34,854 nucleotides of DNA from Nitrososphaerota archaeon. GTDB taxonomy: Archaea > Thermoproteota > Nitrososphaeria_A > Caldarchaeales > JAVZCJ01. Under the pieces are notes generated by a model, which had not been told where the DNA came from, searched no databases, and was given only the letters and a program-made list of their open reading frames with translations. Shown in pieces: positions 18,988 through 30,710 of this stretch (positions are counted from its first letter, which is position 1; each line of letters starts with the position of its first letter). A program made the translations under genes and the position numbers. Location of the stretch: the NCBI GenBank assembly GCA_038817485.1, contig JAWAZL010000019.1, positions 1 through 34,854 on the forward strand, written 5' to 3'.

Positions 18988-19127
18988 TTTCTACTATTTT
19001 ATATTTTTCAGAAATAAAAATTTTTTAACTATTTTACTAAATAGGATTGTCTCTAGTAAGTAGAAACTTTTTAAACTAGTCAAATTATTCTAAAGAAAAG
19101 TTTAAGAATATTTTATGGTTGTATAAA

Positions 19128-19907
19128 ATGCTTAAAAAAAGTCTTACAAAAGAAGAATTCATTAGAATAATAAACTTATGTGAAAATATAGAGAAAAGTG
19201 GTATTGATCCTTTTTCAATTAAAGTTTCAGATTTACTTTCTCATCTGAGAAAAATATTAGAAAAATCAAAAGATATCGAGGAAATAGTGTTGGATGCTGA
19301 GACACTTTATAAAATTTCTCTTCTTATTGCTTATCAAAGTAAATGGTTAAAACAAAAAGTTTCTTCTTTATTTATTGATTATCAACTTTTAGCAATTAAA
19401 ATTTCTACTTCAAGTATTGAAGATATAACTTTAGCTTTTTTAAAAGCTTGGAATCCTATAATATCTTTAGAACAAATTACTCCGTATAGATTAAGACAAG
19501 GAATAGAATATTTTATAAGTTTACCAAGTAGAGAAAAGAAAGCGATTTTTTCAGAAAAATTAAGTGAAAAAGAATTAAGTGAAGCTATTAAAAAACAATT
19601 AATTGATGAAAAACTTTTTGAAGAGAATCTTGAAAAAATTTATCAAGAACTTTTAGAAAAAGCCTCTAAAAAAGAAGAAATAAATTATTGGAATTTTATT
19701 ATAGGAAAAGATTTTAAAGAAACAATAGAAAGAGCATATTTACTAAGTTTTCTTATATCTACTGGAAGGGTAAAAGTAAAAATAGATCCATTAAGTGAAA
19801 AAATAATTATTAAACCATTAGAGAAAAAAATTGAAAATAAAATAACTTCTTCATTGCCAATAGTTATTAATAAAGAGATTTTAAAAAAGAGAGTTAAGTA
19901 TTCTTAA
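19128..19907 (+). CDS. scpA: Kleisin ScpA (segregation and condensation protein A)
   Basis: About 259 residues with the ScpA layout: an N-terminal helical region (including FSIKVSDLLSHL and the YKISLLIAYQSKWL helix) expected to bind the SMC neck, a charged middle that bridges ScpB, and a C-terminal winged helix (FLISTGRVKVKIDPLSEKIIIKPL) expected to cap the SMC head. This is the chromosome-condensing kleisin; its partner ScpB is at 21805, separated by two pilin-like genes. A TTG start at 19119 is in frame; the ATG at 19128 is chosen. No full-length SMC is present in the window, so the ATPase subunit must be elsewhere. The sequence is divergent from bacterial ScpA but the domain order is right. 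Confidence 0.75.
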   Translation: MLKKSLTKEEFIRIINLCENIEKSGIDPFSIKVSDLLSHLRKILEKSKDIEEIVLDAETLYKISLLIAYQSKWLKQKVSSLFIDYQLLAIKISTSSIEDITLAFLKAWNPIISLEQITPYRLRQGIEYFISLPSREKKAIFSEKLSEKELSEAIKKQLIDEKLFEENLEKIYQELLEKASKKEEINYWNFIIGKDFKETIERAYLLSFLISTGRVKVKIDPLSEKIIIKPLEKKIENKITSSLPIVINKEILKKRVKYS

Positions 19908-20063: not shown

Positions 20064-20624
20064 ATGAATATTTTCTATATATTTTCTAAAAAAATTATTG
20101 AAATATTTAAGATAAGTAAAAAAAACAAATCAAGAATTGGAACAAGTCCAGTAGTAAGTAACGTAATACTTGCCTCTACCACTCTTTTAATAGGATTCAT
20201 TATGATAGGATCCACAATGAATTGGTCTGTAACAACTAGTATGGAATATAAAATTGCTACAGAAAAAGCTATTGCAAGTCAAAAATCCAATATGATTATA
20301 GAACATGTTCAAATAATTAATAATAAAGCATACATTTATTTATACAATATAGGTAAAATTCCTTTAAGAATAGTATGCGTTAATATTTATAAGTTAGGAG
20401 AAGCACCCCCTCCTCCAAATTATGAATTAAAAACATTTACGGATGGAAAAACTTTACTGGATATAAATGAATTTAAATGCTTAATTGAAGATATAGATTC
20501 CTCACTTATAGGCAATAGTTTGGTTATTAGAGTATATGCTATAGCACTCACTCTTTTCGATCCTAATAATCCTGGAAAAAATATTGAATGGGGTATAAAA
20601 ATTGATTATTTCTATAATGTGTAA
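20064..20624 (+). CDS. Pilin/archaellin-like protein with class III signal peptide
   Basis: A 186-residue protein. A basic leader (to about residue 24) ends in SRIG and is followed by TSPVV and a ~20-residue hydrophobic helix (about 29-49), the pattern cut by archaeal prepilin peptidase (PibD/FlaK). The rest is a beta-rich exterior domain. Such proteins form type IV pili or other surface filaments, or act as minor pilins. The C-terminus lacks an archaellin family signature, so adhesion pilus is likelier than archaellum. It overlaps the next gene by 8 bases (ATG at 20617 inside its end), which points to translational coupling. It is flanked by ScpA and, after the second pilin-like gene, ScpB. 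Confidence 0.75.
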   Translation: MNIFYIFSKKIIEIFKISKKNKSRIGTSPVVSNVILASTTLLIGFIMIGSTMNWSVTTSMEYKIATEKAIASQKSNMIIEHVQIINNKAYIYLYNIGKIPLRIVCVNIYKLGEAPPPPNYELKTFTDGKTLLDINEFKCLIEDIDSSLIGNSLVIRVYAIALTLFDPNNPGKNIEWGIKIDYFYNV

Positions 20625-21690
20625 AAAGAAAAGGGCAATATCAAATATTATTGCTGCTATAATAATGTTTGCTATCCTATTTTCTATTATCATACCTTTA
20701 ATTTTTTATATCCAAAGTGAGAATGTTTTATACAATTCTGCTGTTATCGAAAGAAGAGAATTAGATTATTATAGATCAAAAGAAGATCTGGAAGTTCATG
20801 CTTATGAAGATTTAAAAGATAAAAATAAAATAAAAGTTGAAGCATATAATAGGGGGGATATTTCTGTAATTATTGAACGTATATGGGTTATTGATAGAAA
20901 TTTAGGTTTAGATGGAATATATGTTTTTGAAAATAATAGTGATTGCACGCCAGATCTACCCTATTTATTAAATCCTAGAGAAAAAGTTGTGACTTTTGAT
21001 ACTGGTGTAAGAGCACAAGTAGATCATTTTTATGATATTAAAATAGTTACAAAAAGAGGAAACATATATATTCCAAAAGAAAGTCCATTACATGGTGGAC
21101 ATGGTGGAAATCCAGCAACCTATGCTTATTCTCTCATAGTTACAATTGTTAATATGCATCCTGGTACTACTTATAATTTCACATTAGTGGGAAATGTGCC
21201 TTATTCTCCTTATACTTTAATTTACAAAGCAACAGCTAGTGTGAAAGATATTTCTATGAGCTTTGGTGTTAATGCAGGAGAATACACTTTATACATGTCT
21301 GATGGAGCTGGTTGGGAAATTACAAAAAATATCTTAGTTCCACAAACATTAGCTGTTGTAATGGATTGTTCTTCTTCCCATATAATGTATGGTTTAGAGG
21401 TTACAATATATTCTTATCCTAAAAATCCACTTAAGCTTGATTCTATATTTACTATTAGAGCAAAAATAAAAAATACAGGATATTCAACTCTTGATGTAAT
21501 TGCTACCTTAAAAACTAATTCCACATGGGAGATTATTTCAGAAAAAGAACAATATGTAGAAGATCTTAAAAGCATGGAAGAAGCAATTATTTCTTGGGAT
21601 GTAAAAGTTACAACTCTTGGGAAATATGGTTTTTGGGTTGTAGCCGATAGCATAGAATCAAATGCTGTTATTATCGAAGCTAAAAAATAA
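20617..21690 (+). CDS. Large pilin-like protein with C-terminal immunoglobulin-like (CARDB-type) domain
   Basis: About 357 residues. After MCKKKRA comes ISNIIAAIIMFAILFSIIIP, a class III signal peptide and filament helix. The outer part contains several beta-rich stretches; the last ~110 residues (from about TIYSYPKNPLKLDSIF) resemble a CARDB/Ig-like domain common in archaeal surface proteins. The ATG at 20617 overlaps the end of the preceding pilin gene (its TAA is 20622-20624), giving coupled translation. It probably forms a filament tip or adhesive minor pilin with the smaller pilin. The gene is followed after 114 bases by scpB. No ATPase or membrane platform gene for pilus assembly is in the window. 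Confidence 0.7.
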   Translation: MCKKKRAISNIIAAIIMFAILFSIIIPLIFYIQSENVLYNSAVIERRELDYYRSKEDLEVHAYEDLKDKNKIKVEAYNRGDISVIIERIWVIDRNLGLDGIYVFENNSDCTPDLPYLLNPREKVVTFDTGVRAQVDHFYDIKIVTKRGNIYIPKESPLHGGHGGNPATYAYSLIVTIVNMHPGTTYNFTLVGNVPYSPYTLIYKATASVKDISMSFGVNAGEYTLYMSDGAGWEITKNILVPQTLAVVMDCSSSHIMYGLEVTIYSYPKNPLKLDSIFTIRAKIKNTGYSTLDVIATLKTNSTWEIISEKEQYVEDLKSMEEAIISWDVKVTTLGKYGFWVVADSIESNAVIIEAKK

Positions 21691-21804: not shown

Positions 21805-22413
21805 ATGAGCAAAAAGGAAATTAAAAAAGAAGATTTGAGAAGAAAACTTTCAATAGCTACAGCTATGTTACTTTTTTCATCTCATAGATTGCCAGGAGTA
21901 AGAGGTTGGGAATTAAAAAAGAGATTAGGAAAAAAGTATATGAAAATAATAGAAGTACTTAATAATTATTTAAATAATATTGGTTTACAAGTAAAAATTG
22001 TTTTTGAGGATGAAGAAAAATTTGTTTTAAATGAAGAAAATCTTGAAAAAGCAAGATTTTATATTACTTTAGCTAAACCATTAACTATTTCTGAAGTTAA
22101 AGGTTCAGGATGGAGAATAGAAGATGTAGCAACATTAGCAATAATAATAACAATAATATCTAGTAAGGGGGGGAAGGCATCTTTAAGTGAAATAAAAGAT
22201 GTTTTATCAACAAAATTGCCAAAATGGAAAATTGAGTCTGCAATTGAAAAATTTATTAGAAAAGGTTATATTCAAATATCTGAAGAAAATATTGTTTATT
22301 TAGGATGGAGAGCTAAAGCTGAAATAGATCAAAAAGAATTATTGAAATCTATGCTTAATTTAGAAATAAAACAATTAAATGAAGGTAAAAATGAAGATGA
22401 AAAATTTACTTAA
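21805..22413 (+). CDS. scpB: ScpB (kleisin partner, segregation and condensation protein B)
   Basis: A 202-residue protein made of two winged-helix domains, the ScpB fold. In the first part come a charged helix (RKLSIATAMLLFSSH) and a helix-turn-helix; in the second, a repeat of winged-helix form includes LATLAIIITIISSKGG and LSEIKDVLSTKLPKWKIESAIEKFIRKGY, close to the ScpB 'LAIIAYKQPI' domain. It would bind ScpA and the SMC head and regulate the ATPase. It is encoded on the same strand as scpA, 1.9 kb away, with two pilin-like genes between them, and overlaps the convergent lhr gene by 8 bases. Divergent from bacterial ScpB, so the domain assignment is moderately sure. Confidence 0.7.
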   Translation: MSKKEIKKEDLRRKLSIATAMLLFSSHRLPGVRGWELKKRLGKKYMKIIEVLNNYLNNIGLQVKIVFEDEEKFVLNEENLEKARFYITLAKPLTISEVKGSGWRIEDVATLAIIITIISSKGGKASLSEIKDVLSTKLPKWKIESAIEKFIRKGYIQISEENIVYLGWRAKAEIDQKELLKSMLNLEIKQLNEGKNEDEKFT

Positions 22414-25258
22414 ACATTCTTTTTAAAGCTTTTCTCTCAGCCTCAATTATTAATTCTATAAGTTTATCACTAAATTTATTTTCTTTTTTAAGTATTTCAA
22501 TAATATCTTTTATTTCAAGATTTTTACCACAAAGTGCAATAGCAGCTGCTTTACCATATTTTTCAATTAATAAAGATATTTTCTTAATTTTTTTAATCAA
22601 TCTTTTTTCATTATTGTTTATTGGTTTTCCTTTTCTTGAAATTAAACCATATAATTCTTCAATTTCAATATTATTAAGACAAGCGATTTTTTTTGAACCA
22701 CAATTTGGACAATTTATAATATCTTCAATATCTTTTAAATATCTTCTTTCATAATATTTCCAACAATTAGAACATATTAAAAGCGTCGATTCACTTAAAA
22801 GCCTAGCTTTTACAGCTTTTAATATTAATCCTTGCATTCTTTCTGAAGTAGAAAATTCGAATTCTTTTTTATATTTATTCAACGTTAATGATGCTAATGG
22901 TGAAGGAGAATCAAGTTTTACAATTTTTATATCAAATTTTCTATCTGCAATATCTTTTAAAAATTCACTTGCTCCATTTATATCCATATCATAATTTGCA
23001 ACACTTCTTAAAGCTTCTTCATAAATTGGCGTATCTTTTACAGCTTTAACAATTTTAGATATAGGTATATCTAATAAGCTTGCCTCTTTTAAAATAACAC
23101 CCATTTTTCTAGCAATATGTACAACTCTTTTTCTAAAGAAACCTGAAGAAACTATCGCAGGAATTATTATTTCTGGAATATTTTCCATTGCAACCTCTTT
23201 AATTATCTCTAAAATATCTTCTGGCTCTATATTTGGAGAATGAAAAATAATTCTATAAGGGTCTTGCTGAGAAGCTACTGGAGCTGATATTTTTTCTGAT
23301 ATATAGTATGCTATAAGTCTAGAGATTGCTCTATTTATTCTTAATCCTCCATGAATGTGAAGCACAATATTTTCTTTAAATTTTTCTAAAACAATTGTTT
23401 TATCAGATGGAACTGGAATATTAAGCTTTACATGTTTCAAAACTTCTTTTAATCCTCTGAAAATTGTTTTAAAATTAATGTTATATCTTTTTGATATATC
23501 TAAGCAAATATCTTTATATTTTTCTCCACTCAATAATCTTTCTTCAACCTCTCTTCTTATTTTTCCAACTTCCTGAGCAACTTCTTTTGGAACAGGAATT
23601 TCTTCACCAACCCAAAAAGGTATTGCTCCTTCGAAATCTTCTTCAGGTAGTACATAAATTTTCTCACCAGAAGCATCTACTATTCTCCATGCTTTACTTG
23701 CTAAAATAAATTTTGTATTTATATCGCCATACTCAGATATGAATTCCTCATCTAATATTCCTATTGGTTCATTATTTACTTCATTTATAACTAAGTATTG
23801 TTTTACTTCAGGTATCATTGAAAGAGTATCAAAATAATATTTATACAATTGTTTAGCATCAATAGGTTTACTTAGGGTTTTTCCATCCGAGTATGCTATT
23901 CCTAAACTAACCATATGATTAATAACTTTGATTAAATGCTCTTTTGAAAGATTTCTAAATGGATATGCTCTTCTAAAAATTTTCAAAAGGTTATCTATGT
24001 CATATTTTGAGTATTCAATTAAAATCCCTGCTATTTGATTCATTAAAACATCGCTACAATCCTCTGGAATGATTGGGTCTTCTAATTCTTCATTTAAAGC
24101 TTTTCTTGAAATAACCATTGCTTCTAATGCATCATCTCCATCTATTACAATTATTATTCCTTTAGAAAATCTTCCAATGGAATGACCACTTCTTCCAACT
24201 CTTTGCATAAGTCTAGTTACTTCTCTTGGAGAATTATATTGAATACATAAATCTATTTTTCCTATATCTATTCCAAGTTCAAGAGAAGAGGTACATACTA
24301 TTCCAATAAGTTTTCCATACTTTAGGCCCTGCTCAGCTGCTACGCGTGAAATTTTTGCAAGAGAACCATGATGTATTCCGATTGGAAAATTTAAATCCCA
24401 TACTTTAAATCTATTTGCTAAAATTTCAGCCAATGGTCTGGTATTAGTAAAAATAAGAGTACTTTCATGGCTTTCTATAAGTTTACGTATTAATGATAAC
24501 CTTGCTGCTACTGAAGGGAAAGTTAGAAGTTTTTCAGCTAAAATTTTATCTTCCTTACTTGGATAAGGATAAAATATATTCAATATCATTTCTTTAGCTA
24601 TAGAAACTTTAACTATTTCGCATTTATTATTCATACCTACAAGAAATTTAGCTATTTTTTCAGGGTTGCCAATAGTAGCTGATAATCCTATTCTTTGAAA
24701 GTTTCTTCCAGTGATTTCAACAAGTCTTTCTAAAGCAACTGAAAGTTGTGTTCCACGCTTATCTGTTGCTAATTCATGTATTTCATCTATAACAACCCAT
24801 CTTATATTTTTAAGATGTTTTCTTAAAACTTTTCCTGTTAAAACTGCTTGAAGAGTTTCAGGTGTAAGTATTAATATATCTGGAGGGCTAATAGCTTGTA
24901 TTCTTCTTTCTTTTTGAGCGGTATCTCCATGCCGTACTGAAACTGTAAAATCAAGTTTTCTACACCACCAATCAATCCTTTCAAGAAGATCTCTATTTAA
25001 AGCTCTTAAAGGAGTAATATAAATAAGCTTTATACCTGGAATATTTCTTAAAAGAAGCATCTCATTGAATATTGGAAGAAGAGCCGCTTCAGTTTTCCCT
25101 GTTCCAGCTGGAGCCACTAAAAGTAAGTTTTTTCCTTGAAGTATTAAAGGAATACTTTTTATTTGAGGAATAGTTAATTCACTAAATTTTTCTTTAAAAG
25201 CTTCAACAATTGGCTTTAAGAGTAATTTTAAAACTTCTTCGCTTTGATTATTTTCCAT
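22406..25258 (-). CDS. lhr: Lhr-family (long helicase-related) superfamily 2 helicase
   Basis: A 950-residue SF2 helicase. Motif I is VAPAGTGKT near residue 50, motif II is DEIH (VVIDEIHELAT), and the Lhr-specific PREVTRLMQRVGRSGHS motif VI region follows. Beyond the two RecA domains come the winged helix and Lhr-core beta region, including HIHGGLRINRAISRL and QDPYRIIFHSP. A C-terminal zinc motif (CSNC ... CPNC) is present. Archaeal Lhr-type helicases unwind 3'-tailed DNA and RNA-DNA hybrids and are linked to repair. It is longer than the Lhr core and lacks the giant C-terminal extension of E. coli Lhr. Start chosen at ATG 25258; TTG two codons before is also in frame. It converges with scpB, overlapping by 8 bases. 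Confidence 0.9.
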   Translation of the reverse strand: MENNQSEEVLKLLLKPIVEAFKEKFSELTIPQIKSIPLILQGKNLLLVAPAGTGKTEAALLPIFNEMLLLRNIPGIKLIYITPLRALNRDLLERIDWWCRKLDFTVSVRHGDTAQKERRIQAISPPDILILTPETLQAVLTGKVLRKHLKNIRWVVIDEIHELATDKRGTQLSVALERLVEITGRNFQRIGLSATIGNPEKIAKFLVGMNNKCEIVKVSIAKEMILNIFYPYPSKEDKILAEKLLTFPSVAARLSLIRKLIESHESTLIFTNTRPLAEILANRFKVWDLNFPIGIHHGSLAKISRVAAEQGLKYGKLIGIVCTSSLELGIDIGKIDLCIQYNSPREVTRLMQRVGRSGHSIGRFSKGIIIVIDGDDALEAMVISRKALNEELEDPIIPEDCSDVLMNQIAGILIEYSKYDIDNLLKIFRRAYPFRNLSKEHLIKVINHMVSLGIAYSDGKTLSKPIDAKQLYKYYFDTLSMIPEVKQYLVINEVNNEPIGILDEEFISEYGDINTKFILASKAWRIVDASGEKIYVLPEEDFEGAIPFWVGEEIPVPKEVAQEVGKIRREVEERLLSGEKYKDICLDISKRYNINFKTIFRGLKEVLKHVKLNIPVPSDKTIVLEKFKENIVLHIHGGLRINRAISRLIAYYISEKISAPVASQQDPYRIIFHSPNIEPEDILEIIKEVAMENIPEIIIPAIVSSGFFRKRVVHIARKMGVILKEASLLDIPISKIVKAVKDTPIYEEALRSVANYDMDINGASEFLKDIADRKFDIKIVKLDSPSPLASLTLNKYKKEFEFSTSERMQGLILKAVKARLLSESTLLICSNCWKYYERRYLKDIEDIINCPNCGSKKIACLNNIEIEELYGLISRKGKPINNNEKRLIKKIKKISLLIEKYGKAAAIALCGKNLEIKDIIEILKKENKFSDKLIELIIEAERKALKRMFK

Positions 25259-25409
25259 AATCAATCAATATTAAATAAATTATTAAAATGCTTGTTTTTA
25301 AATAATTATTTATTTTTAAGAAATACTTAAAAATAAATTTTAATTATTTTTCATTTTTTTAATATATAAAAAATAAATAGAAGTTTTTATTCACTTTTAG
25401 GAAGATTGA

Positions 25410-25823
25410 ATGAGTATGTCCATTAATGAGTATGAAATAAGGGAAGATTGTTTATATACTGGAAAACATATATGGGTTAAAGTTGAAAAAGGGATTGCTA
25501 CAATAGGAATAAGTGATTATGCTCAAAAGAAAATGCAAGAAATATTAACTGTCGAACTTCCTCATTTAAATGAAAGAATTGAAGCTGGAGAAATAATAGG
25601 CTCTGTAGGTTCTATAGATAGTGCTTTAGATATTATAAGTCCAGTAAGTGGAAAAATAATAGATGTTAATGAAGAATTATTAGATAATCCTGAATTAATA
25701 AACGAATCGCCATATGATAGAGGATGGATAGTGAAAATAGAAATGAAAAATGAAGAAGAATTATATGGTTTAATGGACCATGAAGATTATAGAAAATATA
25801 TCGAAGAAATAGCTGAAGAATAA
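25410..25823 (+). CDS. GcvH-like protein with Asp in place of the lipoyl lysine
   Basis: A 137-residue protein with the fold of glycine cleavage H proteins: TGKHIWVKVE, ATIGISDYAQ, the lipoyl hairpin, SPVSGKIIDVN, and LINESPYDRGWIVKI. In H proteins the hairpin is E-S-V-K-A with the lipoylated Lys seven residues before the SP of SPVSG. Here the matching residue is Asp70 (GSIDSALDIISPVSG), so lipoylation at this site is not possible. The other fold residues, including the DNPxLINxSPY segment, are intact, so it is not decayed. The gene is only four bases before the SerRS gene, suggesting co-expression. It may be a structural or ligand-binding relative; the role is unknown. A second H-like protein with an intact Lys is at 30291. 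Confidence 0.85.
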   Translation: MSMSINEYEIREDCLYTGKHIWVKVEKGIATIGISDYAQKKMQEILTVELPHLNERIEAGEIIGSVGSIDSALDIISPVSGKIIDVNEELLDNPELINESPYDRGWIVKIEMKNEEELYGLMDHEDYRKYIEEIAEE

Positions 25824-25827
25824 AGGT

Positions 25828-27372
25828 GTGAAATTTTTGAAATTTAATATTGAAGCATATATTCTTTTTACCTCCTCTCCGGAAAAAAAGGATATAGAAA
25901 TAGCCATTGAAGAAATATATAAAAAAATATCTGCTAAGAAAAATGGAGAAGAAACAAAAATAATTGATATGAAATTTTTAAATGATAAAATATTTTTAAA
26001 AATTATTAGTGGAAAAAAGTATAGAGCTCATTCTTTTCTTTTGATGTTAAGAAATAAAATTGCTAAAGAATTAGAAAAAAGGAAAATAGGAATCAGAGAA
26101 ATAAAAATAGAGAAAGCTGAAGCATGGATTGAAATTAAACAAAAACCATTAGAGGAAGTAAATCTACCCTTCGTAAAAAAAATAGATTTTAATGAAAATA
26201 TTGCACATATAGTTTTTTCAAATATAGATGAAAAAGCTTTAGAAAAAAATTATATCGATAGAATAGTTCAATTATTAGAGAAGAAAATTTTAGCTCAATA
26301 TATTACTGGAAAAACAGCACTTTCAAAAACAATTAAAGAATCTTCAAAAAAATTAGATAAATATTATTTTAAAAAAGATTTTACTGAAGAACTTATTAAA
26401 ATAGGATGGATTAAAGAATTTCCTGCTAGAGGAATATGGCAGTATATGCCACCTTATACTGCTCTCATAAGAGCTATTGAAGCAGCTTTTATAGAAAACA
26501 TAGTTAAAAAGATGGGATTCAAAGAAATGCTTTTTCCAAGATTAATTCCACTTGAAGTGCATATGAGAAAAGGACAATTAACAGGAACACCAAATGAAAT
26601 GTTTTGGGTTTGCCCACCTAAATCTAGAGAGAAAAAATTTTTTGAATATTTTTCAGATTATGTAGAAATAACGAGAGAAATACCTAAAGAAGAGTTAATG
26701 AAATATTTGGACACACCTATAGCTGCATTAGCTTATGCTCAATGTGAACCATGGTATGAAATATTCAGAGGAGAAATAATGGACATAGATAATGGTCCAT
26801 GGCTTTTTTTTGATAGATTTGGCCCTACATGGAGATATGAAGCAGGTGGATTAAAAGGGATTGAAAGATTAACAGAATTTTATAGAATGGAATTAACATG
26901 GGTTGGAAAACCGGAGGATGTTTCAAAAATAAGAGATGAATTGCTTAATAGAGCAGAAAAATTTGTAGATGATATAATGGATATTGAATATAGAATAGAA
27001 GCAACTACTCCAGTATATTTAGAGCATTCACTTGAATTGGAAGAAGAAAGAAAAGAAATCGTTAAAACATATGAAATCGTAGGAGTATTACCATACGGAA
27101 CATTAAGTAGACCTGAAGAAAAAGAATTAGAATTAAGTAATTTTAGCATTCATCTAGATTTTTACGCAAAAAGATATAATTGGAAAGAGAGGAAAAACAG
27201 AGAGATATGGTCTGGCTGCTCTGGAATCGGTTTATCAAGATTTGTATATATGTTTATAGCTCGATGGGGCACAAATTTTGAAGATTGGCCATATGAAATT
27301 AAAAAATATATTGGTGAGAAACTTCCCGAAACAATTTTTATGATAACTTGGCCTAAATATAAAAAAGTATGA
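25828..27372 (+). CDS. serS: Seryl-tRNA synthetase, methanogen-type (type 2, zinc-dependent)
   Basis: A 514-residue class II synthetase that charges tRNA-Ser. It belongs to the rare type 2 SerRS known mainly from methanogens. The active-site zinc ligands are placed as in that group: Cys306 in AQCEPWY, Glu355 in FYRMELTW, and Cys464 in GCSGIGLSR. Motif 2 is seen in TWRYEAGGLKGIERLTEF, and motif 3 in GIGLSRFVY. The N-terminal ~165 residues form the type-specific mixed alpha/beta tRNA-binding domain. Start: GTG at 25828; an AGGTG site overlaps it and lies eight bases before a TTG at 25837 (MKFNIEAY...), which may be the real start. It is four bases after the GcvH-like gene. Presence of a conventional type 1 SerRS elsewhere cannot be judged. 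Confidence 0.92.
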   Translation: MKFLKFNIEAYILFTSSPEKKDIEIAIEEIYKKISAKKNGEETKIIDMKFLNDKIFLKIISGKKYRAHSFLLMLRNKIAKELEKRKIGIREIKIEKAEAWIEIKQKPLEEVNLPFVKKIDFNENIAHIVFSNIDEKALEKNYIDRIVQLLEKKILAQYITGKTALSKTIKESSKKLDKYYFKKDFTEELIKIGWIKEFPARGIWQYMPPYTALIRAIEAAFIENIVKKMGFKEMLFPRLIPLEVHMRKGQLTGTPNEMFWVCPPKSREKKFFEYFSDYVEITREIPKEELMKYLDTPIAALAYAQCEPWYEIFRGEIMDIDNGPWLFFDRFGPTWRYEAGGLKGIERLTEFYRMELTWVGKPEDVSKIRDELLNRAEKFVDDIMDIEYRIEATTPVYLEHSLELEEERKEIVKTYEIVGVLPYGTLSRPEEKELELSNFSIHLDFYAKRYNWKERKNREIWSGCSGIGLSRFVYMFIARWGTNFEDWPYEIKKYIGEKLPETIFMITWPKYKKV

Positions 27373-27514
27373 TAAAGAAATATTCTTAGCTTACTTCAAA
27401 ACTTCAATATATAAATATTTAAGGTTTTAAAATAAAAATTAAAAATATAGTAAATGTAATTCTTTAAGCTTCAAGCCTATTGTAAATATTCCTTAAAAAA
27501 TGCTCATAAAGTAT

Positions 27515-27536
27515 TATTTCTTTTAAAAAAAGAATA
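27515..27536. terminator. Imperfect A/T hairpin between convergent serS and Smc5-like genes
   Basis: TATTTCTTTT pairs imperfectly with the AAAAGAATA that follows (one bulge). It lies between two convergent genes and carries T-runs in both directions, as expected of a bidirectional archaeal terminator. Sequence support is weak because the whole spacer is A+T-rich. Confidence 0.3.
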
Positions 27537-27553
27537 ACTCCATTAGCGCATTT

Positions 27554-29374
27554 TTATGGAGATTTTAAAATAAGAGATTTTCCCTCTATATTTTGAACGA
27601 TTATCACATTAACATTTTCTTCAACAAATACTTTACCTGGAGTAATAATTATGTATTGTGTGTTAGGGTCTTCATATGCGATTGATAATAACATTTTTAA
27701 CATCTTCTCTCTATATAAAGGATCCATATGAACATCGAATTCATCAATAGCTCTAAATGGTGACATCATATATTTTTGTAATGAAAGTAAAAAAGCCATC
27801 GTAGATACTGTTCTTTCCCCCCCACTTTGTGTATGAGAATTTAATAAAGTTAATTCGGCGCCTTTAAAACCAACATATATTTCTAAAGCCGCACTTCTAA
27901 TATCCTCTAAATTTCTTAAAACTATTTTTCCAGAAGCATCAATTGAAGATAATATTCCATTAAATATAGGATTAACATTTTCTATTAATTTTCTAATAAA
28001 ATCTCTCCATACTTTTTTCCTATATTCAATCTCTTCAAGAGTTTTCTTAATATTTTCATTCAATTCCTTTGCTTTTAATTCTGTTTCTCTATATTTTGAA
28101 TCTGCTAAAATATACATTTCTTCAGCTTCTTGATTAACTGTTCCAAGAGATGCTATGTTTATATTTATATGCTGTATATCTGAAAATATTTCCATTGGTT
28201 TTCTTAATGTTTTTACTCTTTCTCCTTTTTTATTAGCCTCAATAATTTTCTCTTCTAAATTTTTATTAATTTCTTCATAATTTTTTTCATTTTTTCTAAG
28301 CTCATGCTCAATTTCTTTCTTCTTATATTTTGTAATAGCTAATTCAGTATTTTTATTAATTAAGTTCTCAACAGATTTTATTAATTTTTCTTCGCATGTA
28401 GATATTTCTATTAATAATTTTTCTTTTTCATTTTCGCTATTTTCCATTAATTCAGCTAATTTGAAATATAATGCTCTTAAATTAATTAAATAAGAATTAA
28501 AATTATTTCTTTCATTTTTAATTTCTTCTTCTAAAAATATTATTTTTTCATTCATTTCTTTTAAATCTTCTTTATATAATTCTATCCTTTTTGCTATTCT
28601 TTCTAAATTATTTTCCAATTCTATAACAATAGACCAAGCATATTCTCTTTCCAATTCTTCCCTTTGTCTTTGTAAATTCTTTAATTTCATTAATTTCTCA
28701 TACTCATTCCTCCAATAATCTGTTGCCATTTTAGCTTCTTCAAGAATTTTTTCTATAGCTTTTTGTTCACTTACTAATTCTGTTAATTTTCTTTCTGCTT
28801 CTATTATTCTTTCTCTTAATGTTTTTGCACCAACAGCATCTTCTACCATTAATAATTTTTCCTCATCAGATTTTGAAGCAAATTGTTCAACCATATTTTG
28901 ATGCATAATTATTAAAGCATTATTTGGATTAATTCCTGCTTGTTTTAATAAATGTTCAACTTCTGCTTTAGCCATATATCTATTATTTACTAAATGCCAA
29001 TAATCTCCATTTTTCTTTAAGTATCTTGTTATAGTAATTTTATCAGTATTAATATTTTGAAATGGCCTTTTTCCATTAATTTTTGAATTATTTAAAATAA
29101 CAGTTACTCTTGCTGCTTCAGCTCCCCTCCTAATTAATTGACTAAGTTTTTCTCCCCTCTCTGTATATGTTTGACCTAATGCAACGGATATTCCTAAAAG
29201 TATAGAAGATTTTCCAGCTCCATTTGGTCCTAGAATTAAATTTAATCCAGGTTTAAGGATTATTCTAGAATATTCATGACTCATAAAATTTTCTAATATT
29301 ACTTCCTCTATGAATGTTTTAGCAATCGCATATTTTTCTTCTATTTCTTGCATTGTTTCTTCTTTCTTTTTCAT
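27554..29374 (-). CDS. Smc5-like SMC-family ATPase without a hinge domain
   Basis: A 606-residue SMC-superfamily ATPase. Walker A is GPNGAGKSS (49-57); the Q-loop segment HQNMVEQFA (158-166) is followed by EEKLLMVEDAVG, as in Smc5. The ABC signature is SGGERTVSTM (517-526), and Walker B is in SPFRAIDEFDVHMD (Asp544-Glu545). The C-terminal head block LGTVNQEAEEMY, FNGILSSIDASGKIVL and TQYIIITPGKV also read like Smc5, while SPFRAIDEFDVHMD reads like Smc6. The coiled coil spans about 185-480 without a globular hinge and without a CxxC zinc hook, so it is about half the length of normal SMCs. It may form dimers by another surface. Transcribed after the unknown gene at 29515. Confidence 0.85.
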   Translation of the reverse strand: MKKKEETMQEIEEKYAIAKTFIEEVILENFMSHEYSRIILKPGLNLILGPNGAGKSSILLGISVALGQTYTERGEKLSQLIRRGAEAARVTVILNNSKINGKRPFQNINTDKITITRYLKKNGDYWHLVNNRYMAKAEVEHLLKQAGINPNNALIIMHQNMVEQFASKSDEEKLLMVEDAVGAKTLRERIIEAERKLTELVSEQKAIEKILEEAKMATDYWRNEYEKLMKLKNLQRQREELEREYAWSIVIELENNLERIAKRIELYKEDLKEMNEKIIFLEEEIKNERNNFNSYLINLRALYFKLAELMENSENEKEKLLIEISTCEEKLIKSVENLINKNTELAITKYKKKEIEHELRKNEKNYEEINKNLEEKIIEANKKGERVKTLRKPMEIFSDIQHININIASLGTVNQEAEEMYILADSKYRETELKAKELNENIKKTLEEIEYRKKVWRDFIRKLIENVNPIFNGILSSIDASGKIVLRNLEDIRSAALEIYVGFKGAELTLLNSHTQSGGERTVSTMAFLLSLQKYMMSPFRAIDEFDVHMDPLYREKMLKMLLSIAYEDPNTQYIIITPGKVFVEENVNVIIVQNIEGKSLILKSP

Positions 29375-29514: not shown

Positions 29515-30201
29515 TTATTTAGAAATTAAAGGATATATTTCGTCTCTTACATAATCGATTAAATCCTTCTCTTCTATTTTACTAAAAGCAGTAACTACGC
29601 AATTATAAGTTAAACCAAATACCCATCCCTTTGTAGTAGAAGTATAAACAATATATAAAATTTTTCCATGTCTTAAATACTCTTCATATAATGAAGTATT
29701 TTTTAATGCTTCACCATATAATGAAAGTTTTTTTATACCAGGTATATCTAAATCATGGAAAAAAATTACTTTTGTTCCATCAGGATTTTTTTCATGAAAA
29801 TCTTTAAGTTTTTCTGAAGAAATTCTAGCCTCAACTATTGATTCATAATTCATGAATAATATTTGACTTAATATTGAAGCAATAGTATTTGCTTGATGTT
29901 TTTCTTGTAAAACAAATAATAGAATTTTATTATCATATTCATCAAATATAATTGGCGTTTCGATTGTTTTTATCATAGGTATCCTTTTCCCTCTTTGAGA
30001 AATTATTATTGGTTTATCTCTATTAAATAAAGCTGACAAACTTTTTTCTTTAAGAGAAATATTTTTTATCTCTATTAATATTTCTAATTCTTCATTATTT
30101 ATTTTAAAAATTTCTGTATGAGAATAATTTTTTAATTTTAAAGCAATTTCTTCAAGAGATATTTCTTCTTTTATTTCAAAAATTTTTCCTGCAAGAACCA
30201 T
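29515..30201 (-). CDS. Unknown protein upstream of the Smc5-like gene
   Basis: A 228-residue protein I do not recognise. It is mixed alpha/beta, with no membrane segment, no zinc motif and no Walker A. Notable parts are an N-terminal region rich in alternating acidic and lysine residues, a central strand KVIFFHDLDIPGIKKL with the acidic DLD, and a hydrophobic, aromatic C-terminal stretch (YTSTTKGWVFGLTYNCVVTAFSK). An ATG start follows AGTGATC, a good archaeal ribosome binding site. It is on the same strand as the Smc5-like gene, 140 bases upstream, so a functional link such as a regulatory or nuclease-like partner is possible but unproven. It is divergent from the second GcvH-like gene. Confidence 0.6.
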   Translation of the reverse strand: MVLAGKIFEIKEEISLEEIALKLKNYSHTEIFKINNEELEILIEIKNISLKEKSLSALFNRDKPIIISQRGKRIPMIKTIETPIIFDEYDNKILLFVLQEKHQANTIASILSQILFMNYESIVEARISSEKLKDFHEKNPDGTKVIFFHDLDIPGIKKLSLYGEALKNTSLYEEYLRHGKILYIVYTSTTKGWVFGLTYNCVVTAFSKIEEKDLIDYVRDEIYPLISK

Positions 30202-30290: not shown

Positions 30291-30710
30291 ATGATAGAAG
30301 TTAATGGATATAAAATTCTTGAAAATTTGCTTTATAGCAAAGATCATACATGGGCTAAAATTGAAGATGATAAAGCAAGGGTAGGAATTACTGATTATGG
30401 TCAAAAATCAGCTGGTAAAATAATGTTTGTTAGATTCAGACCAAAGGGAACAATCTCTCAATCACAAGGACTTGGTACTATTGAAACTGCAAAATGGGTT
30501 GGCGTTGTAAAATCTCCTGTTTCAGGAGAAATAATTGAAATAAATCCTAAATTAAGAGATAATCCAAGCTTAATAAATGAAAGTCCATATGAAGATGGAT
30601 GGATAGCAATAATAAAATTATCAAAATTTGAAGAAGATAAAAAGAATTTAATGACCGCAGAAGAAGCAGCTAAATGGTTAAAAGAGGAAATATTAAAATC
30701 TAAAAAGTAA
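30291..30710 (+). CDS. gcvH: GcvH-like lipoyl carrier protein
   Basis: A 139-residue H-type lipoyl protein. The segment ETAKWVGVVKSPVSG holds Lys68 exactly seven residues before SP, at the lipoylation position. Other family blocks (SKDHTWAKIE, RVGITDYGQ, DNPSLINESPYEDGWIA) are intact. Canonical H proteins read ESVKA around the lysine; ETAKW with the following VG is an alternative seen in other lipoate-binding relatives. The protein could serve glycine cleavage or another lipoate-based pathway, but none of gcvT, gcvP or lpd is in the window. The next gene, a thioredoxin-fold protein, begins 24 bases later and probably shares its transcript. Confidence 0.9.
   Translation: MIEVNGYKILENLLYSKDHTWAKIEDDKARVGITDYGQKSAGKIMFVRFRPKGTISQSQGLGTIETAKWVGVVKSPVSGEIIEINPKLRDNPSLINESPYEDGWIAIIKLSKFEEDKKNLMTAEEAAKWLKEEILKSKK

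What the first reader, a model, noticed from the sequence alone, without database searches (positions are those of the whole stretch)
27554..29374. Hinge-less Smc5-like ATPase in an archaeon
The 606-residue protein has SMC head motifs that read like eukaryotic Smc5 (HQNMVEQFA, SGGERTVSTM, TQYIIITPGKV) and Smc6 (SPFRAIDEFDVHMD). It has a short coiled coil with no room for a hinge and no zinc-hook CxxC. SMC5/6-related proteins have been discussed in archaea, but a hinge-less Smc5-like form next to an unknown gene and close to kleisin/ScpB genes could be an ancestral or simplified Smc5/6-type machine.
Basis: partly seen in the sequence, partly recalled or inferred. Interest (0 to 1): 0.75.

Follow-up and report, generated by a model that had tools for sequence, protein, structure and literature searches.

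The report
Hinge-less archaeal Smc5/6-type complex
Many archaea carry a short DNA-handling ATPase related to the eukaryotic Smc5/6 genome-guardian but without its 'hinge', encoded with its own linker (Nse4-like) and clamp (Nse1/Nse3-like) genes and in some lineages as the only detectable SMC-type machine, which suggests the Smc5/6 core is older than eukaryotes and may work without a hinge.

Summary
The ORF (minus strand, 606 aa) is an intact SMC-type ATPase: catalytic residues invariant, about 128-residue coiled-coil arm, no hinge, no CxxC. It is not a truncation: 128 of 300 Thermoproteota genomes carry a 570-760 aa ortholog. Head trees put it with eukaryotic SMC5+SMC6 (support 100/99; grouping with canonical SMC rejected, p=0.007). 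In 103 loci it is followed on the same strand by two genes, usually overlapping: a kleisin closest to Nse4, and a kite whose predicted fold best matches Nse3/MAGE and Nse1. The three co-occur (122 of 125-128 genomes). In this genus they are scattered over 10 kb of the window. The same genome also encodes a canonical smc-scpA-scpB operon; in 41 genomes (28 at least 90% complete) no canonical SMC was found. Proposed function: a homodimeric, ATP-driven DNA clamp resembling the Smc5/6 head/Nse1-3-4 module. 'SMC5/6-related' archaeal SMCs are already published (Yoshinaga & Inagaki 2021, seen only as cited); I found no report of the missing hinge, the Nse4/kite operon or the sole-SMC lineages. Asgard archaea could not be searched.

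The parts
27554..29374 (-). Hinge-less Smc5/6-like ATPase, 606 aa. Walker A GPNGAGKS (49-56), Q-loop Gln159, signature SGGE (517-520), Walker B DEFD with catalytic Glu545. Antiparallel coiled coil about 184-476, tip about 312
19119..19907 (+). Nse4-like kleisin, 262 aa (TTG start); C-terminal winged-helix region about 165-240
   Evidence: Pfam Nse4_C 1.8e-6, above its cutoff; family profile vs PDB: Nse4 1.6e-5, human EID3/NSE4B 2.3e-4, ScpA 0.07; 18 of 29 members hit Nse4_C; one of only two kleisins found in the genome; gene following the hinge-less SMC in about 100 loci
21805..22413 (+). Kite (tandem winged helix), Nse1/Nse3-MAGE-like, 202 aa
   Evidence: AlphaFold2 pLDDT 91.7; top PDB fold matches Nse3, MAGE-G1, Nse1; Pfam MAGE and SMC_Nse1 weak hits in members, no ScpB; operon and co-occurrence
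29515..30201 (-). 228-aa orphan protein, directly upstream and co-directional here. Candidate accessory, not shown to belong
   Evidence: 45 of 80 loci have it near the hinge-less SMC, mostly divergent; in 112 of 128 hinge-less-SMC genomes but also 13 without; no Pfam or PDB relative

Best explanation
Three genes of the window, 27554-29374 (-), 19119-19907 (+) and 21805-22413 (+), encode a dedicated SMC complex of the Smc5/6 lineage: two copies of a hinge-less SMC ATPase, one Nse4-like kleisin and a kite, probably a homodimer. Shown by computation: the ATPase is intact and hinge-less, its head groups with SMC5/SMC6, and the three genes form a conserved, co-inherited operon in related archaea. 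Inferred: ATP engages two identical heads; the kleisin bridges the neck of one and the cap of the other; the kite, bound to the kleisin, closes the top of a clamp around duplex DNA, as Nse3/Nse4 do over the Smc5/6 heads. Without a hinge the arm tips hold no stable dimer interface, so the two ATPases are held together by ATP, kleisin and kite, and DNA is gripped in the head-kleisin compartment rather than in a large SMC ring. Likely role: chromosome organisation or DNA-junction maintenance, as the only SMC complex in some lineages and beside canonical Smc-ScpAB here.
For: Head tree: hinge-less + SMC5 + SMC6 supported 100 (LG+F+I+R4) and 100/99 (mixture model); 100/98-99 when SMC5 or SMC6 is left out; grouping with canonical + SMC2/3 rejected, p=0.007, 0.010 and 0.016. 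Operon: in the 103 loci with a near-full-length SMC and both partners, all three lie on one strand and mostly overlap or abut. Co-occurrence 122 of 128/126/125 genomes, p 1e-72 to 1e-82. Kleisin: Nse4_C, Nse4 best in PDB, and a true kleisin by profile match to ScpA, E 2e-8. Kite: fold matches Nse3/MAGE/Nse1. Within-genome contrast: the canonical operon has SMC_ScpB (5e-35) and a kleisin with only a weak Rad21_Rec8 hit. No hinge, no hook, tip least conserved. Catalytic residues invariant. Sole SMC complex: 41 genomes without detected canonical SMC; 15 of these rechecked with all candidates scored gave only the hinge-less gene and weak partial hits. Mechanistic precedent: yeast Smc5/6 clamps DNA with heads and Nse1-3-4 (PMC9191643), and hinge-less yeast Smc5/Smc6 sub-complexes engage with ATP (PMC8327961).
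Against: No physical interaction or biochemistry. Shared-residue counts are equivocal: 5 columns shared only with SMC5/6 against 4 shared only with canonical SMC; profile bit scores to canonical archaeal SMC (146-255) overlap those to SMC5 (226), so placement rests on the tree, with only two species per eukaryotic SMC5/SMC6 and long branches. Nse4 and MAGE sequence matches are weak individually. One SMC gene and one kite gene, against Smc5+Smc6 and Nse1+Nse3; the Nse2 search is uninformative. In this genome the three genes are not one operon.
Confidence: 0.78

Rival explanations
1. An independent early-branching archaeal SMC whose kleisin and kite resemble Nse4 and Nse1/3 because those keep ancestral kleisin/kite features; the affinity to SMC5/6 is not special descent.
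For: Shared-residue counts are equivocal; profile scores to canonical archaeal SMC and to SMC5/6 overlap; eukaryotic sampling is thin and branches long.
Against: 100/99 support, AU rejection of the canonical grouping, both robust to leaving out SMC5 or SMC6. Long-branch pull should draw SMC5/6 toward Rad50, yet that is what the data reject. The kleisin prefers Nse4 over ScpA and the kite Nse3/Nse1 over ScpB in fold ranking.
Confidence: 0.17
2. The hinge-less protein is a regulator or alternative partner of the canonical SMC (for example a heterodimer or loader) and uses the kleisin/kite only through it.
For: 87 genomes encode both, and canonical Smc-ScpA(B) is present in this genome.
Against: 41 genomes, 28 of them at least 90% complete, have the hinge-less set and no detected canonical SMC; 15 of these rechecked exhaustively. 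The canonical SMC has its own adjacent ScpA and ScpB.
Confidence: 0.06
3. A Rad50- or Lamassu (LmuB)-like short-armed ATPase acting in repair or defence with a nuclease/effector.
For: Similar size to LmuB (about 650 aa, about 20 nm arms, PMC10586767); PADLOC LmuB 77 bits along the full length.
Against: No CxxC; Walker B Glu invariant, whereas LmuB generally carries Glu to Gln (PMC10586767); partners are kleisin and kite, with no PADLOC hits for them; single-copy and near-universal within the order; no viral orthologs in the IMG/VR scan; head tree excludes Rad50.
Confidence: 0.04
4. A truncated or frameshifted canonical SMC.
For: Shares SMC head motifs and is about half the length.
Against: Intact orthologs of 570-760 aa in 128 genomes; monophyletic, 98/93; a full canonical SMC exists separately in the genome.
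Confidence: 0.01

Closest known systems
Eukaryotic Smc5/6 core complex (Smc5, Smc6, Nse4 kleisin, Nse1/Nse3 kites)
   Same: Head lineage, Nse4-type kleisin, Nse1/Nse3-type kite; an SMC complex with kites rather than HAWKs
   Different: No hinge, short arms, one SMC gene, one kite gene without a RING-length extension; Nse2 and Nse5/6 not established
'SMC5/6-related' archaeal SMC (Yoshinaga & Inagaki 2021, as described in PMC9389158)
   Same: Archaeal SMC sister to SMC5+SMC6 in published trees; very likely the same family or its hinge-bearing relatives
   Different: The 2021 paper was not available here; the later paper's description says nothing of a missing hinge, a dedicated kleisin/kite operon or sole-SMC genomes
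Canonical prokaryotic Smc-ScpA(-ScpB)
   Same: SMC + kleisin + kite composition; about 30% head identity
   Different: Hinge (SMC_hinge 8 of 12 vs 0 of 29), about 1170 aa, ScpB kite; in this genome a separate smc-scpA-scpB operon
ASRP / coalescin ClsN / Sph (PMC9389158)
   Same: Short (about 600 aa) archaeal SMC-superfamily proteins
   Different: ASRPs mostly carry a zinc hook and form their own clade; here no CxxC and NCBIfam ASRP score 47 against cutoff 300
Lamassu LmuB
   Same: About 600-650 aa, short arms, hinge-less
   Different: Rad50-like, often zinc-hooked, Walker B Glu to Gln, effector partners (PMC10586767)
'Hinge-less SMC' of marine Actinomycetes metagenomes (PMC12153180)
   Same: SMC homologues without hinge or zinc hook
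   Different: Bacterial, known from ocean gene catalogues; no kleisin/kite operon described in the passages read; not found in tandem with regular SMC there

Membership tests
Smc5/6 complex | SMC head in the SMC5/SMC6 clade | tested here: met
   100/99; sister to SMC5+SMC6, not inside either
Smc5/6 complex | Nse4-type kleisin | tested here: met
   modest scores (1.8e-6, 1.6e-5), preferred over ScpA
Smc5/6 complex | Nse1/Nse3-type kite | tested here: met
   fold search top hits Nse3, MAGE-G1, Nse1; but one gene, not an Nse1+Nse3 pair
Smc5/6 complex | Two different SMC subunits (Smc5 and Smc6) | tested here: not met
   one hinge-less SMC gene in this genome; one per genome in the listed matches
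Smc5/6 complex | Hinge domain dimerising the SMC arms | tested here: not met
Smc5/6 complex | Nse2 SUMO ligase (zf-Nse) | tested here: inconclusive
   no hit in own genome, but nothing rang in the controls either
Canonical SMC | Hinge domain and about 1100-1200 aa | tested here: not met
   NCBIfam SMC_prok_A 183 vs cutoff 729
Canonical SMC | Head inside the canonical SMC clade | tested here: not met
   AU p=0.007, 0.010 and 0.016
Rad50 | Zinc hook CxxC at the coiled-coil tip | tested here: not met
   the extracted Rad50-clade proteins mostly lacked CxxC too, so this alone is not decisive
Rad50 | Head inside the Rad50 clade | tested here: not met
ASRP/coalescin | Curated family score, zinc hook | tested here: not met
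   NCBIfam 47 vs 300, no CxxC
Lamassu | LmuB with LmuA/LmuC partners; Walker B Glu to Gln | tested here: not met
   features from PMC10586767
SMC-kleisin-kite complex (general) | Physical assembly of the three products | not testable with these tools
   operon and co-occurrence only

The most novel reading that the evidence does not exclude
The Smc5/6 core (head ATPase + Nse4 kleisin + Nse1/3 kite) existed in archaea before eukaryotes, and its archaeal form is a functional SMC complex with no hinge at all, serving as the only SMC complex of whole archaeal lineages. If so, a hinge is not required for the essential chromosomal work of an SMC complex, and the eukaryotic Smc5/6 hinge is either a retained ancestral trait lost here or was regained by fusion.
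Probability: 0.5. Interest if true: 0.92.

Novelty: new variant of a known kind. Interest (0 to 1): 0.82.

Why it matters
Smc5/6 is the eukaryotic SMC complex with kite subunits, and its origin is unsettled. Published work held that archaeal Smc-ScpA generally lacks a kite (PMC7055376). Here archaea carry a second, separate SMC set with an Nse4-type kleisin and an Nse1/Nse3-type kite, which gives Smc5/6 a plausible prokaryotic counterpart for the SMC, kleisin and kite together. The missing hinge matters to the SMC mechanism field: ring and loop-extrusion models give the hinge a central part, and these archaea offer a natural system, with short proteins, to ask what an SMC complex can do without one. 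Lineages with no detected canonical SMC make the question directly testable.

Tried and rejected
Truncation/frameshift: rejected by intact orthologs in 128 genomes. Rad50/ASRP/Lamassu: rejected by tree, hook and Walker B. ScpA/ScpB identity of the partners: the kite family gave no ScpB hit and the kleisin family no ScpA Pfam hit, while the canonical operon's kite hits SMC_ScpB. Profile bit scores as a placement argument: dropped, since canonical archaeal SMCs score 146-255 against SMC5's 226. Shared-residue count: 5 vs 4, not informative. Viral origin: IMG/VR scan gave only head-motif-level matches. 228-aa neighbour as an obligate subunit: co-occurs in 112 of 128 but also in 13 genomes without the SMC, so left as a candidate. 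Asgard and other phyla: the genome search accepts only genome handles as centre and 'relatives' stayed inside the phylum. Yoshinaga & Inagaki 2021 is not in the library. Nse2 search uninformative.

Full report
Observation. The ORF at 27554-29374 lies on the minus strand and encodes 606 aa. It is an SMC-superfamily ATPase (SMC_N 1.5e-32) whose closest solved-structure relatives by sequence are SMC5 and SMC6.

It is a family, not a fragment. The first relatives search found matches in 59 of 61 genomes, including full-length orthologs in nearly all of the same order; the genome-contig search kept 80 named loci from Methanomethylicia, Bathyarchaeia, Nitrososphaerales-labelled, Hecatellales, Thermofilales, Conexivisphaerales and others. 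In an even draw of 300 genomes of the phylum, 128 carry it at E below 1e-60. Open frames are mostly 570-760 aa. In 29 diverse members the key Walker A, Q-loop, signature and Walker B residues including the catalytic glutamate are invariant.

No hinge. Pfam SMC_hinge matches 8 of 12 canonical SMCs from related genomes and none of 29 family members. The AlphaFold2 model has one long helix (184-311), a two-residue turn and a returning helix (314-383) with breaks near 384-392 and 410-416 that resemble the SMC joint. The tip is the least conserved part and where lengths vary, and no member has a CxxC. So no conserved dimerisation element is visible at the tip.

Phylogeny. Head domains were taken from human and yeast SMC5, SMC6 and SMC2 and human SMC3 (PDB sequences), 11 canonical archaeal SMCs, 5 Rad50-clade proteins and the 29 hinge-less proteins. 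Under LG+F+I+R4 and a C20 mixture the hinge-less proteins form one group (99; 98/93) that joins SMC5+SMC6 with 100 and 100/99. Holding them instead with canonical SMC and SMC2/3 is rejected (p=0.007; 0.010 without SMC5, 0.016 without SMC6). Caveats: two species per eukaryotic SMC5/SMC6, long branches, and neither shared-residue counts nor profile bit scores discriminate by themselves.

Partners. In the 103 loci with a near-full-length hinge-less SMC and both partners, the two partner genes follow on the same strand, usually overlapping or a few bases away. The first is a kleisin: Pfam Nse4_C 1.8e-6 for the window copy, 18 of 29 members matching, Nse4 and human EID3 the best PDB sequences, ScpA weaker; profile comparison with the canonical ScpA set confirms kleisin homology (E 2e-8). 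The second is a tandem winged-helix kite: model pLDDT 91.7, top PDB folds Nse3, MAGE-G1 and Nse1, with a ScpB-like entry (1t6s, identified as ScpB from memory) only at rank 25. Among 300 genomes, SMC, kleisin and kite occur in 128, 126 and 125, all three in 122 (Fisher 1e-72 to 1e-82). These p-values ignore shared ancestry, but the exceptions are few and several are incomplete genomes.

This genome. Here, and in the sister species G001, the set is scattered: kleisin at 19119 (+), kite at 21805 (+), SMC at 27554 (-). Elsewhere in the same genome a canonical SMC (1167 aa) sits in an operon with a ScpA-type kleisin and a clear ScpB (5e-35). These are the only two kleisins the profile finds. Two SMC systems therefore appear to run in parallel, each with its own kleisin and kite.

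Distribution against canonical SMC. Of the 300 genomes, 87 have both, 68 only canonical, 41 only the hinge-less set (28 of them at least 90% complete; the 41 spread over 12 families), 104 neither. For 15 of the 41, all at least 90% complete, a canonical SMC query with every candidate scored found only the hinge-less gene plus weak partial hits. In those lineages the hinge-less complex looks like the only SMC complex.

Mechanism (inferred). [quoted passage not shown] Counterparts of each of these elements are present here. The most likely reading is a homodimeric ATP-driven DNA clamp held together by head engagement, kleisin and kite. Whether it translocates or extrudes loops without a hinge is open.

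What is known. [quoted passage not shown] the 2021 paper was not readable here, so whether it noted the missing hinge is unknown to me. Archaeal Smc-ScpA is reported to lack a kite, and six tested archaeal ScpA-ScpB pairs did not bind (PMC7055376). My searches of the held library found no paper describing an archaeal Nse4/kite operon; the library omits most subscription papers. Hence 'new variant of a known kind', not 'categorically new'.

Limits. No binding or activity data; complexes were not modelled; Asgard archaea and other phyla could not be searched; taxon names apply to the loci, while the genomes are unnamed.

Noticed in passing
window 29515-30201 (-): Orphan 228-aa family without Pfam or PDB relatives; near the hinge-less SMC in 45 of 80 loci and in 112 of 128 genomes with it, but also in 13 without.
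   Followed up: partly
window 25410-25823 (+) and 30291-30710 (+): Two glycine-cleavage-H-like genes flank the hinge-less SMC region (the second is GCV_H 2.1e-38; the first by sequence resemblance, not scanned).
   Followed up: no
window 25828-27372 (+): Class II aminoacyl-tRNA synthetase with the PF18490 tRNA-binding domain, which I recall as the rare methanogen-type SerRS N-domain.
   Followed up: no
window 20064-21690 (+): Two ORFs with hydrophobic N-termini, archaellin/pilin-like by eye, lie between kleisin and kite in this genome, interrupting the operon seen elsewhere.
   Followed up: no
window 22406-25264 (-): Lhr-type helicase next to the kite; an Lhr homologue lies near the operon in 23-26 other loci.
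   Followed up: partly
window 27480-27560 (-): Hairpin just downstream of the hinge-less SMC gene, more stable than shuffles (z -3.4), possibly a terminator.
   Followed up: no
L147:4525-9254: Canonical smc-scpA-scpB operon in this archaeon, with a strong ScpB match (5e-35), although archaeal Smc-ScpA is reported to work without ScpB (PMC7055376).
   Followed up: partly
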